Below are positions 18,260-21,725 of a stretch of 64,000 nt of DNA, piece by piece. The stretch comes from Terriglobia bacterium. Its GTDB lineage: Bacteria; Acidobacteriota; Terriglobia; UBA7540. How positions within the stretch are numbered: the first letter of the stretch is position 1; each line of letters opens with the position of its first letter. The notes beneath the pieces are model-generated. The model had not been told where the DNA came from. It saw nothing but the letters and a program-made list of their open reading frames with translations, and made no database searches. Location: the NCBI GenBank assembly GCA_020072655.1, contig JAIQGH010000030.1, positions 1 through 64,000 on the forward strand, in the 5' to 3' direction. The translations under genes and the position numbers were made by a program.

Positions 18260-19195
18260 TTGCGTCAAATAATCGCCATCCTGGCAGTGGCAGCGTTTTG
18301 GATTTTGGGTTTCGATCTTCTCGGCGCCGTAGTCTCCACGACCGCTCCCGCCCGCACTAAGTCCAAAAGCACGGGATCCACAATTGCTTCCTCGCCCTCG
18401 CGGGCCGCGGCGGTAGAGACGCCCCGCCGGGGCGTCTCTACAAGGGCGCGGACCTCGTCCGCCAAAAGAAAGCGGGCGAGCTCACGCGCGCGCCGGCGAC
18501 GGCCCAGCCCGTGGCGGATCAGTTCCTATAGCGATCCCGCCGCCCATGACAATCCCGCGAGTGAGGACCGGATCGTGCGCGAGGCGGCGATTGATGCCCT
18601 CGGGCGGTGGAATGGCAGCGTCGTGGTCGTCGATCCAAACTCGGGCCGGATTCTCACGATTGTCAACCAGCCTTTGGCGTTCGCGAGCGGCTTCACGCCC
18701 TGCTCGAACTTCAAGCCCGTCGTGGCGCTGGCGGCGCTCAAGGAAGGGGTGATCACCTCGGACACCAAGCTGCGGGTCGGCCGCCGTCTGCGCATGGACC
18801 TGACCGAAGCCTTGGCCCATTCGAATAATCTCTTCTTTTCCAAGCTGGGCCAGCAATTGGGTTTCGACCGGGTGGCCGAATACGCGCACCAGTTCGGACT
18901 GGGTGAAAAGGCCGGTTACAACATCCCCGAGGAGAGCCCCGGCAAGTTTCCCGAAGTTGCGCCGAAAGAAGGCGGTGTGGGGCTCCTGTCGAGCTACGGG
19001 CGTAGCATTGAGGTCACGCCACTGCAGATGGCCGCCCTCATATCCGCCATCGCCAACGGCGGCACGCTCTACTACCTGCAATATCCGCGCAGCGCAGAGG
19101 AACTCGCAACTGGACGGCCTCGAGGAATATGTTGCGCACGTGAAGGAAGGACTCGCCGCTGCGGTGCTGTACGGGACGGGGCGTCTGGCCTATGA
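18260..19195 (+). CDS. Penicillin-binding transpeptidase, 5' part (frameshifted)
   Basis: It starts with TTG at 18260 after a strong AAGGAGG at 18241. An N-terminal membrane anchor (residues about 4-25) is followed by a basic linker rich in Ser/Arg (about 30-85) that is partly encoded by a palindromic repeat. The transpeptidase domain then begins: active-site serine motif SNFK (S149-K152) and second motif SNN (188-190). The family-typical RSIEVTPLQMAALISAIANGG split over two motifs is present. The frame is lost near 19106-19110; the conserved KTGT motif lies in the next frame. No dimerisation/pedestal domain is present, so it is a compact penicillin-binding protein that cross-links peptidoglycan if intact. 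Confidence 0.82.
   Translation: MRQIIAILAVAAFWILGFDLLGAVVSTTAPARTKSKSTGSTIASSPSRAAAVETPRRGVSTRARTSSAKRKRASSRARRRRPSPWRISSYSDPAAHDNPASEDRIVREAAIDALGRWNGSVVVVDPNSGRILTIVNQPLAFASGFTPCSNFKPVVALAALKEGVITSDTKLRVGRRLRMDLTEALAHSNNLFFSKLGQQLGFDRVAEYAHQFGLGEKAGYNIPEESPGKFPEVAPKEGGVGLLSSYGRSIEVTPLQMAALISAIANGGTLYYLQYPRSAEELATGRPRGICCAREGRTRRCGAVRDGASGL
18413..18441. repeat. 29-bp perfect palindrome inside a gene, copy 2
   Basis: It is identical over 29 bases to the copy at 49-77. Here it is read in frame as VETPRRGVST within the basic linker of the transpeptidase. It looks like a REP-type element tolerated because the linker is unstructured. Confidence 0.85.
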
Positions 19196-19448
19196 CCCCG
19201 ACGTGCAGATCTACGGCAAGACAGGAACGTGCAGCGAGGATGGCGCGCGCCTGGGCTGGTTCGTCTCCTACGCGACGGAACCCCAACCCAAATACGTCGT
19301 CGTGGTCTTGCTGCGCGGCGGGCGCATGATGTTCGGCCCTCACGCCGCGGAAATTGCCGGCCGCCTCTACCACAACCTTCGCCTGCGCGAACAACCCCCG
19401 GCGCAGGCCAGCACTCCTTTGCCCATGCCTCTCGGCATCGCTCGCTGA
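19110..19448 (+). CDS. Penicillin-binding transpeptidase, 3' part (frameshifted)
   Basis: This is the continuation of the transpeptidase in another frame. It starts at LDGLEEYVAHVKEGL and carries the third active-site motif KTGT in VQIYGKTGTCSED, then LGWFVSYA and YVVVVLLRGG of the C-terminal sheet. Removing one A near 19109 joins it to the 5' part as EELALDGLEEY, so a one-base insertion (biological or assembly) explains the break. Coordinates of the left end are estimated from that reading. Confidence 0.78.
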   Translation: MDGLEEYVAHVKEGLAAAVLYGTGRLAYDPDVQIYGKTGTCSEDGARLGWFVSYATEPQPKYVVVVLLRGGRMMFGPHAAEIAGRLYHNLRLREQPPAQASTPLPMPLGIAR

Positions 19449-19533: not shown

Positions 19534-20034
19534 TCAAGCCGCGACTTCGTTCAGTTTGCCGGTCTTCACATCGTAGATGAATCCCCGCACGACCACGTGC
19601 TTAGGGATCCAAGGATGGGACTTTATCCTCTGGATTTGCTCGCGCACGTTGTCTTCCAGCCTCGTAAACGAGTAGAAGTGGACCGGCGCCACGGTTGCGG
19701 TGCCCGTCTGCCGCTGGAGTCTCCCCCGCAGGTCGTCATCCTTGAACGTGAGCATTCCGCAATCGGTGTGATTGATGACCATGAATTCCTGCGTCCCCAG
19801 CAGGTGGTGCGAAATGATCAGGGAGCGCAGCGCATCTTCGGTCGCGACGCCACCAGCGTTACGGATGATGTGGGCCTCACCAGTCTTGAGCCCCAGCAAC
19901 TGCGAGACGGTCAGCCGGGCATCCATGCAGGCGAGCACCGCCAGCTTGCGAGCGGGCGGCATCGGTAGATGCCCCAGGGTGAAACCTTTGGCGTAAGTCT
20001 TGTTAGCTTCCAGCACTTCATCGATAACGCTCAT
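19534..20034 (-). CDS. Beta-class carbonic anhydrase
   Basis: The protein has 166 residues, short form. Zinc ligands are C36 in ACMDARL, H89 and C92 in NHTDCGML; the D38/R40 dyad of the beta class is present. The motif RNAGG follows at residue 58. It interconverts CO2 and bicarbonate in the cytoplasm. The ATG is preceded by a strong AAAGGAGG. Upstream lies a promoter with a palindrome, a structured RNA and an intrinsic terminator, so expression is probably controlled by attenuation or is read through from a small RNA gene. Confidence 0.93.
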   Translation of the reverse strand: MSVIDEVLEANKTYAKGFTLGHLPMPPARKLAVLACMDARLTVSQLLGLKTGEAHIIRNAGGVATEDALRSLIISHHLLGTQEFMVINHTDCGMLTFKDDDLRGRLQRQTGTATVAPVHFYSFTRLEDNVREQIQRIKSHPWIPKHVVVRGFIYDVKTGKLNEVAA

Positions 20035-20109
20035 GACTTATCCTCCTTTGGGATTTGCGCCCTTGGGCTCACGGTCAGCCAACTACAGGCACCCGCGCTC
20101 CCAACGAGC

Positions 20110-20162
20110 GGAGTCACACAAAACAGAAACGCCCGCCAGCGTCGTCTTTGCCAGCGGGCGTT
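20110..20162 (-). terminator. Intrinsic terminator upstream of the carbonic anhydrase
   Basis: On the minus strand a 9-bp GC-rich stem (AACGCCCGC at 20128-20136 pairing with GCGGGCGTT at 20154-20162) is followed by GTTTCTGTTTTG. It lies between the structured RNA and the carbonic anhydrase start, as expected for an attenuator or the end of a small RNA. Confidence 0.6.
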
Positions 20163-20300
20163 CCGAATGAGAACTGAATTAGAGGCTTACAGGCTCGTTA
20201 TCTCAAAGGGAGAGGCTCCGCTAGCGGATGGACAACAACAGCACATCCGCTGCGCCTCGTTCACCCTTATCGACCTGTAAGAGCCACCAAGCATTGTTGA
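20163..20300 (-). ncRNA. Structured leader or small RNA before carbonic anhydrase
   Basis: On the minus strand the stretch 20186-20281 folds as one long interrupted hairpin: closing helix CTTACAGG/CCTGTAAG, then AAGGG/CCCTT, GAGGC/GCCTC and an apical helix AGCGGATG/CATCCGCT with a U-rich loop. A terminator follows at 20128-20162 and a promoter-like sequence precedes it. The total transcript would be about 170-190 bases. I compared it from memory with SRP RNA, 6S RNA, tmRNA and the common riboswitches; none has matching conserved nucleotides. Class unknown. Confidence 0.5.
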
Positions 20301-20307
20301 ACTAACA

Positions 20308-20337
20308 AGACTACTACGGACAAATTGTCCGCGTCAA
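20308..20337 (-). promoter_or_regulatory. Promoter-like sequence with palindromic operator candidate
   Basis: On the minus strand, TTGACG (20332-20337) and TAGTCT (20308-20313) are 18 bases apart. The spacer contains a perfect 15-base palindrome, CGGACAAATTGTCCG on the plus strand, at 20317-20331. A palindrome between -35 and -10 is a classic repressor position. The regulator is unknown. Confidence 0.5.
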
Positions 20338-20420: not shown

Positions 20421-21725
20421 CTAGACCCGCTCCAGCGCGATCTGCAAGTCGCCGATGATGTCGTGCCAATCCTCCAGCCCGATCGACAGCCTGACGCCTT
20501 CCGGATGCATGCCGAAGGCGCGTTTCTGCTCGTCGGGCAGCGCCGAATGGGTCATCGAGAACGGGTGCTCGATAAGCGTCTTAACCTGCCCCAAGCTCAC
20601 GGCCAAGGTAATCGTGTAAGCGTGTTCGGCCAGGTAATCCACCAGCTTCTCGGCGCGCGAAGGCTTGCTGCCCGACTCTTTGAGGACAAAGTACAGCATC
20701 CCGCCCGGCGCAAACTTGCCGTCTGGATTCACCATCTGCCGGTGGGCCAAAGCCTTCTGCGCGAAGCACTCGGCGCCGGGATAGGCGACGCGCTCCACCT
20801 TCGGGTGTTCGGAGAGGAACTTGGCGACGCGCTGCGCGGTCTTCTGTTGATTGATCATGCGCGTGGCGAGCGTCGGCAGTCCATAGACGAGGATGCCCCA
20901 GGCGCTGCGCGGCGTGAGCACGCCGCCGAAATCTTTGCGGAAGAGCATCAGGTGGTTGTACCAGGCTGACGGAGCGATCACCGCGCCGCCCATGTCCGTC
21001 CCGAAGCCGCCGATATCTTTCGTCAGGCTCTCGGCGACGATGTCCGCGCCCAGCTTGAGTGGCCGCTGGCAATAGGGCGTAGCAAAAGTGTTGTCCACGA
21101 CCACCAGCACGCGATCCTTCTCCTCGCGGCCGGCGTTGATCTGGTCGGCAAGGCGGCGGATTTCCCCGATATCAATCAGCTCCATCGTGGGATTCACCGG
21201 CGTCTCGAAATAGAGCACGCGCGTCGCGGGCGTCACCTGCGCCGCCAGCGCTTCGGGCTTGAGGAAATCGCCAAAGCGCACCTGCATGCCAAAGCGCGGC
21301 AGCCAGTTGGTCATCAGGCTGTAGGTGCAGCCGTAGAGGATTTGGTGGGCGAGCACTTCCTGCCCCTGGCGCAGCGCCACGCCCAGCACCGTGCTGATCG
21401 CGGCCATGCCGCTGGCGAAGGTCACGCAGACGTCGCCGCCCTCGGCGTAGGCCAAGTTCTCCTCGAGCATGGAGCGCGTCGGCTCGTCCAGACGGTCGTA
21501 AATGTAGATGGGCATGTGGCCGCTCAGCGCCTCGTCGGCGGAGGCGAATTGCACAAAGCCCTGCGCGCCGCGATGCAAGGACGTCAGCCGGAAGGCCGTC
21601 GAGTGCGAGATGGGCGGTACCACGTGGTGGTTGTAGTCCCACTTCTTGCTCTCGAAGTTGCCGTGAATCAGATGCGTGCGCATCCGGTAGTCTTCCTTGC
21701 GGGCATGCGGCTTGCGAGTTTCCAT
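20421..21725 (-). CDS. PLP-dependent Cys/Met metabolism enzyme (methionine gamma-lyase / cystathionine gamma-synthase type)
   Basis: The protein has 434 residues. It has the fold type I trans-sulfuration pattern: YDRLDEPTRSMLEENLAYAE, VTFASGMAAIS, YFETPVNPTMELIDI, VVVDNTFATPYCQRPL, and the Schiff-base lysine in AESLTKDIGGFGTDMGG. The lysine context (TKDIGGFGTD) differs from the usual TKYxxGHSD, which marks a divergent subgroup annotated as cystathionine gamma-synthase/methionine gamma-lyase-like. It would act on homoserine or cysteine derivatives; synthesis versus degradation cannot be decided. The ATG at 21725 is likely, with an internal ATG 14 codons later as alternative. No SAM riboswitch was seen upstream. 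Confidence 0.88.
   Translation of the reverse strand: METRKPHARKEDYRMRTHLIHGNFESKKWDYNHHVVPPISHSTAFRLTSLHRGAQGFVQFASADEALSGHMPIYIYDRLDEPTRSMLEENLAYAEGGDVCVTFASGMAAISTVLGVALRQGQEVLAHQILYGCTYSLMTNWLPRFGMQVRFGDFLKPEALAAQVTPATRVLYFETPVNPTMELIDIGEIRRLADQINAGREEKDRVLVVVDNTFATPYCQRPLKLGADIVAESLTKDIGGFGTDMGGAVIAPSAWYNHLMLFRKDFGGVLTPRSAWGILVYGLPTLATRMINQQKTAQRVAKFLSEHPKVERVAYPGAECFAQKALAHRQMVNPDGKFAPGGMLYFVLKESGSKPSRAEKLVDYLAEHAYTITLAVSLGQVKTLIEHPFSMTHSALPDEQKRAFGMHPEGVRLSIGLEDWHDIIGDLQIALERV

What the first reader, a model, noticed from the sequence alone, without database searches (positions are those of the whole stretch)
20110..20337. Structured leader or small RNA in front of carbonic anhydrase
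On the minus strand a promoter with a perfect 15-bp palindrome in its spacer is followed by a 96-base multi-helix hairpin, a terminator and then the carbonic anhydrase with a strong ribosome site. This layout fits attenuation control or an unrecognised riboswitch (possible CO2/bicarbonate- or pH-related control), or a free-standing small RNA of about 180 bases. It does not match common classes I can recall.
Basis: partly seen in the sequence, partly recalled or inferred. Interest (0 to 1): 0.65.

Follow-up and report, generated by a model that had tools for sequence, protein, structure and literature searches.

The report
Cysteine-sensing leader peptide attenuator
The structured stretch in front of the carbonic anhydrase gene hides a short gene with a run of cysteine codons, and its RNA is built so that a ribosome stalling there for lack of cysteine should switch on the next gene; closely related switches sit in front of sulfur-assimilation genes across this group of Acidobacteriota.

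Summary
In detail: promoter, long hairpin, intrinsic terminator, then the carbonic anhydrase. Homologous leaders occur in 29 of 40 genomes of the same order (30 loci). All keep the Cys codons, an open frame, the terminator, and a segment 12-22 nt after the first Cys codon that imitates the terminator's 3' arm. This antiterminator pairing covaries (7 of 10 pairs change on both sides; 0 of 500 shuffles). The leaders mostly precede TauE/SafE permease, ATP sulfurylase or APS reductase genes, not carbonic anhydrase; a second set of 25 Cys leaders precedes NIR_SIR (sulfite/nitrite reductase) genes. Best reading: a ribosome-mediated, cysteine-responsive transcription attenuator of sulfur assimilation, not a riboswitch or CO2/pH sensor. 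Amino-acid attenuation is a known kind; polycysteine leaders are known in Actinobacteria, where no conserved terminators were found; no paper I could search describes one in Acidobacteriota. The promoter palindrome is not conserved. No expression data were available, and how termination resumes after full translation is inferred.

The parts
20332..20337 (-). -35 element TTGACG
   Evidence: TTGAC(A/G)-like -35 at the matching place in most homologous leaders
20317..20331 (-). 15-bp palindrome CGGACAATTTGTCCG in the promoter spacer; not conserved, role unknown
20308..20313 (-). -10 element TAGTCT (weak)
20187..20294 (-). Leader peptide ORF, 35 codons plus stop: MLGGSYRSIRVNEAQRMCCCCPSASGASPFEITSL*
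   Evidence: open frame and Cys run kept in 30 homologous leaders
20232..20243 (-). Four Cys codons TGC TGT TGT TGT (sensor codons, apex of the hairpin)
20179..20290 (-). Hairpin 1:2 formed by the two halves of the leader ORF
20218..20225 (-). Segment 2, GCTAGCGG: antiterminator strand, pairs with the terminator 5' arm
20150..20162 (-). Segment 3: terminator 5' arm AACGCCCGCTGGC
20128..20140 (-). Segment 4: terminator 3' arm GCTGGCGGGCGTT
20120..20129 (-). T-rich tail of the terminator
19534..20034 (-). Controlled gene: beta-class carbonic anhydrase (Pro_CA), relatives include Rv1284 and COS hydrolase; ribosome site at 20035-20049
20421..21725 (-). Upstream neighbour: Cys/Met-metabolism PLP enzyme; also upstream of the leader in G001 and G017. 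Context only

Best explanation
A ribosome-mediated, cysteine-responsive transcription attenuator. RNA polymerase starts a few bases before an ORF for a 35-residue leader peptide with four consecutive Cys codons. Shown here: the ORF, the conserved frame and Cys run, the hairpin with the Cys codons at its apex, the terminator, and a covarying antiterminator pairing between the codons after the Cys run (segment 2) and the terminator 5' arm (segment 3). Inferred: when Cys-tRNA is scarce the ribosome stalls at the first Cys codons, occupies the 5' arm of the hairpin and leaves segment 2 just outside its leading edge; segment 2 pairs with segment 3, the terminator cannot form and the downstream gene is transcribed. 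When cysteine is plentiful, or the leader is not translated, segment 2 is taken up by the hairpin, the terminator forms and transcription stops after about 180 nt. In relatives the controlled genes are TauE/SafE permease, ATP sulfurylase, APS reductase and NIR_SIR reductases; here it is a beta-carbonic anhydrase that lies in the same kind of operon (leader-TSUP-CA-CysH) in the sister genome.
For: 30 homologous leaders in 29 of 40 genomes of the order, all with consecutive Cys codons, open frame and terminator. First ATG after the -10 is in frame with the Cys run and open in 28 of 30; other frames hold stops in 28 and 26 of 30. Cys codons at or next to the apical loop of the ORF hairpin in nearly all. 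Antiterminator covariation: 7 of 10 pairs changed on both sides, 0 of 500 shuffles, slid controls at most 2. Masking a ribosome at the first Cys codon gives the antiterminator in 30 of 30, median 16 nt from that codon; without a ribosome it is absent in 21 of 30, the window included. Downstream genes are sulfur assimilation in 27 of 30, plus this carbonic anhydrase. 25 more Cys leaders before NIR_SIR genes with the same logic.
Against: No expression or ribosome data. With a ribosome parked at the stop codon the crude equilibrium model still favours the antiterminator in 26 of 30, the window included, so the off-state after full translation is not shown. RNAalifold does not recover the ORF hairpin from the full alignment; it rests on single-sequence folds and a swap test. 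The antiterminator swap test is modest (21 of 30). Two leaders precede outer-membrane receptor-like genes with no known sulfur link. Loci are related by descent.
Confidence: 0.88

Rival explanations
1. A metabolite riboswitch, or an RNA sensing CO2/bicarbonate/pH, controls the carbonic anhydrase.
For: Strong conserved structure with a terminator in front of the gene.
Against: No Rfam match. Conservation centres on the Cys run and on segments complementary to the terminator. Relatives precede sulfur genes, not carbonic anhydrase. Diverged NIR_SIR leaders keep the Cys run while the rest of the sequence and terminator differ.
Confidence: 0.03
2. The Cys leader controls translation of the downstream gene (as reported for mycobacteria) or Rho access instead of the intrinsic terminator.
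For: Mycobacterial polycysteine ORFs are described as regulating translation (PMC9031893, PMC13236596).
Against: A strong intrinsic terminator lies between leader and gene in every locus, and the complementary segment targets that terminator's 5' arm with covariation.
Confidence: 0.06
3. A free-standing small RNA of about 180 nt acting in trans.
For: The terminated product has that size; own promoter and terminator.
Against: Leaders stay directly in front of sulfur genes on the same strand in 27 of 30 plus 25 loci; a coding frame and antiterminator are kept.
Confidence: 0.03
4. In this particular genome the attenuator is a decaying relic left when the TSUP and CysH genes were lost, and it no longer regulates.
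For: TSUP and CysH are missing behind the leader; no PAPS_reduct or NIR_SIR protein found in this genome; weak -10.
Against: Cys run, segment 2:3 pairing and terminator are all intact, and the CA has a strong ribosome site. The genome is a draft in 209 contigs, 96% complete.
Confidence: 0.1

Closest known systems
Classical amino-acid leader-peptide attenuators (trp, his, ilv type)
   Same: Leader peptide with repeated codons of the regulated amino acid, mutually exclusive antiterminator and intrinsic terminator, control of the matching biosynthetic genes.
   Different: Cysteine-specific; leader ORF begins within a few nt of the inferred 5' end; the ORF continues about 15 codons beyond the sensor codons, so a ribosome at the stop does not cover segment 2 as in trp; Acidobacteriota.
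Leaderless polycysteine short ORFs of mycobacteria (Canestrari et al. 2020, known here through PMC9031893 and PMC13236596)
   Same: Consecutive Cys codons in a short ORF at or near the mRNA 5' end, before cysteine/sulfur genes.
   Different: Those are described as acting on translation of downstream genes; here an intrinsic terminator and covarying antiterminator are present. No sequence relationship was shown.
Predicted cys leader peptides of Actinobacteria (Seliverstov et al. 2005, PMC1262725)
   Same: Cys-run leader peptides before cys operons.
   Different: [quoted passage not shown] here the full attenuator is present.
Clade D beta-carbonic anhydrases / COS hydrolase (controlled gene)
   Same: Pro_CA fold family; sequence similarity to Rv1284 and to Thiobacillus COS hydrolase.
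   Different: Better match to carbonic anhydrases than to COS hydrolase; substrate untested.

Membership tests
Ribosome-mediated transcription attenuator (leader-peptide class) | Short ORF with consecutive codons of one amino acid | tested here: met
   four Cys codons; 2-4 consecutive in all 30 relatives
Ribosome-mediated transcription attenuator (leader-peptide class) | Intrinsic terminator between leader ORF and gene | tested here: met
Ribosome-mediated transcription attenuator (leader-peptide class) | Antiterminator that excludes the terminator and is exposed by a stalled ribosome | tested here: met
   (sequence and covariation; not by experiment)
Ribosome-mediated transcription attenuator (leader-peptide class) | Terminator wins when the leader is fully translated | tested here: inconclusive
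   equilibrium model with a ribosome at the stop still favours the antiterminator in 26 of 30
Ribosome-mediated transcription attenuator (leader-peptide class) | Controlled genes belong to the pathway of the sensed amino acid | tested here: met
   across relatives; the window's own gene is a carbonic anhydrase, for which the link is indirect
Ribosome-mediated transcription attenuator (leader-peptide class) | Expression responds to supply of the amino acid | not testable with these tools
   needs reporter or RNA-seq
Mycobacterial leaderless polycysteine sORFs | ORF begins at the mRNA 5' end (leaderless) | tested here: inconclusive
   start codon 9-21 nt after the -10, so 5' UTR inferred to be a few nt; start site not mapped
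Mycobacterial leaderless polycysteine sORFs | Acts on translation, without a conserved terminator | tested here: not met
   conserved terminator and antiterminator
Rfam riboswitch or other described RNA family | Match to a curated covariance model | tested here: not met
COS hydrolase (clade D beta-CA), for the controlled gene | Sequence relationship to the Thiobacillus enzyme | tested here: inconclusive
   clear homology, but Rv1284-type carbonic anhydrases score higher
COS hydrolase (clade D beta-CA), for the controlled gene | COS hydrolysis activity | not testable with these tools
   enzyme assay needed

The most novel reading that the evidence does not exclude
The beta-carbonic anhydrase behind this cysteine attenuator is a sulfur-supply enzyme: a carbonyl sulfide hydrolase that delivers H2S for cysteine synthesis under cysteine control, in an acidobacterium whose genome shows no PAPS/APS reductase or NIR_SIR reductase.
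Probability: 0.2. Interest if true: 0.75.

Novelty: new variant of a known kind. Interest (0 to 1): 0.58.

Why it matters
A 2010 survey noted that almost none of the attenuators predicted in phyla such as Acidobacteria had an assigned function (PMC2965389). This gives one class of them a signal (cysteine), a testable mechanism and a gene set (sulfate and sulfite assimilation) across one order of Acidobacteriota. It also supplies what the Actinobacterial cys leaders lacked in the 2005 comparison, a terminator/antiterminator pair, here with covariation. The same searches turned up histidine leaders before hisG and hisI, so leader-peptide attenuation may be a common regulatory style in this class. 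A carbonyl-sulfide-hydrolase-like carbonic anhydrase under cysteine control suggests a direct test for COS use as a sulfur source.

Tried and rejected
Rfam at gathering and relaxed thresholds: nothing. First ORF reading (MCCCC starting at 20246 behind GAGG) rejected as the main start: that ATG and SD are missing in several relatives (G026, G013, G034, G021, G033, G025, G005), while an upstream in-frame start is present in all; internal initiation stays possible. RNAalifold on the full alignment recovers only the terminator. Promoter palindrome as a conserved operator: not conserved. Model R1 outside the order: matches are terminators or histidine leaders, apart from L101. Cys leaders upstream of ATP sulfurylase elsewhere: two in other families of the class (L101/G354, L162/G084), none convincing among loci sampled from other classes. 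Pattern hits L016, L017, L020, L023, L030 (mostly Proteobacteria) rejected as chance, no terminator hairpin. Whole genome in Python not available; the Canestrari paper is not held.

Full report
What is there. Folding is stronger than in all shuffles (z -3.9 with terminator, -3.2 for the hairpin). Rfam has nothing.

The overlooked gene. The hairpin is an ORF. From the ATG at 20294 it reads MLGGSYRSIRVNEAQRMCCCCPSASGASPFEITSL and stops at 20187-20189; the four Cys codons occupy 20232-20243 and lie at the apical loop.

Relatives. A DNA search of relatives, a pattern scan of named genomes (the genuine hits are Acidobacteriota, labelled Terriglobia or gp13 where named more closely) and a covariance model R1 gave 30 homologous leaders in 29 of the 40 genomes of the order. 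Every one has 2-4 consecutive Cys codons in an open frame of 25-37 codons. The start was tested without assuming the frame: the first ATG at least 5 nt after the best -10 is in frame with the Cys run and open in 28 of 30; of the two exceptions one has a GTG start and in the other the -10 was probably placed wrongly. The other two frames contain stops in 28 and 26 of 30. The start codon mostly lies 9-21 nt after the -10, so the inferred 5' UTR is only a few nucleotides. An SD-like GAGG before the internal ATG occurs in only some genomes. Synonymous changes are only mildly enriched (35:62 against 28:81 and 22:76 in the other frames), as expected if only the frame, the Cys run and the RNA pairing matter.

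The switch. About 12-22 nt after the first Cys codon a segment imitates the 3' arm of the terminator, for example CGTTGGTGGGCG in the ORF against CGTTGGCGGGCG in the terminator of G023. On alignment A5 the pairing of this segment with the terminator 5' arm is kept in 87.6% of cells, with both-sided changes at 7 of 10 pairs; none of 500 shuffles reached this and slid controls gave at most 2. Masking a ribosome with its A site at the first Cys codon leads to the antiterminator in all 30 leaders, beginning a median 16 nt from that codon; without a ribosome it is absent in 21, including the window. With a ribosome at the stop codon the crude model still prefers the antiterminator in 26, so the last step of the cycle is inferred from known attenuators, not shown. 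The own-versus-swap energy test is modest for the antiterminator (21 of 30 better than the swap mean) and stronger for the ORF hairpin (29 of 30).

What it controls. The first gene downstream is a TauE/SafE permease in 13, ATP sulfurylase in 11, APS/PAPS reductase in 2, a NIR_SIR protein in 1, the carbonic anhydrase in 1 (the window) and an outer-membrane receptor-like protein in 2. A second model R2, built from weak R1 hits, found 25 leaders with Cys runs that all precede NIR_SIR proteins (one, G022:C135, is in both sets); the ORF-terminator complementarity recurs (mean z -2.6). In the sister genome the order is leader, TSUP, CA, CysH. In the window genome TSUP and CysH are not at this place. 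Family searches found no PAPS_reduct and no NIR_SIR protein anywhere in it, which may be real loss or a gap in a 96% complete draft.

The carbonic anhydrase. It is a Pro_CA protein whose best solved relatives are Rv1284 and other beta-CAs, with the carbonyl sulfide hydrolase of Thiobacillus close behind. Clade D beta-CAs include COS hydrolases and occur in Acidobacteria (PMC8209446), and a fungus can use COS as sole sulfur source (PMC10880591). Whether this protein hydrolyses COS is untested. Only 7 of 40 genomes have an orthologue, and only the two of this genus were seen behind a Cys leader, so the leader belongs to sulfur assimilation rather than to carbonic anhydrase as such.

Known or new. 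Leader-peptide attenuation is classical. Cys leaders were predicted in Actinobacteria without terminators (PMC1262725), and polycysteine leaderless ORFs regulate by attenuation in mycobacteria (PMC9031893, PMC13236596). My searches of the open literature found no report in Acidobacteriota, but most subscription papers were not searchable. I file it as a new variant of a known kind.

Limits. Everything is computational. The loci are related by descent, so counts are not independent events.

Noticed in passing
L059/L108, L060/L109, L102, L104, L105, L106, L107: Histidine leader peptides (for example MQVHLHHRHHHHHHVTSVSADLSGLI) followed by a terminator in front of hisG or hisI in the same order and in other families of the class; apparently a second amino-acid attenuator type in Acidobacteriota.
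   Followed up: partly
L110-L138: A second set of 25 Cys leaders with a different terminator (CCCACCGTCGG...), all before NIR_SIR (sulfite/nitrite reductase-type) genes; some carry two Cys runs (CCC.CCC) or six Cys codons.
   Followed up: yes
L070 and L071 (G036, G033): In two genomes the Cys leader precedes a large outer-membrane beta-barrel, TonB-receptor-like gene; perhaps uptake of organic sulfur.
   Followed up: partly
L101 (G354) and L162 (G084): Short Cys leaders (MTLPLAMCCCPFRPAAEVCPGTCGLQA; MPLRLAFEMGCCCP) with a terminator upstream of ATP sulfurylase in other families of the class, with little sequence similarity to the window's leader.
   Followed up: partly
window 20317-20331: The perfect palindrome CGGACAATTTGTCCG is absent from the sister genome's promoter; sites within 2 mismatches number 26 in the genome against 12 for the reversed control pattern, so a small regulon of an unknown repressor is not excluded.
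   Followed up: partly
window 18260-19448, + strand: A transpeptidase-like gene appears split over two overlapping frames (18260-19195 and 18903-19448), suggesting a frameshift or sequencing error near 19150 (judged from the translations only).
   Followed up: no
whole genome G000: No PAPS_reduct (PF01507) or NIR_SIR (PF01077) protein found in the 96% complete draft, although close relatives have both; the only ATP sulfurylase match contains a TAG stop.
   Followed up: partly
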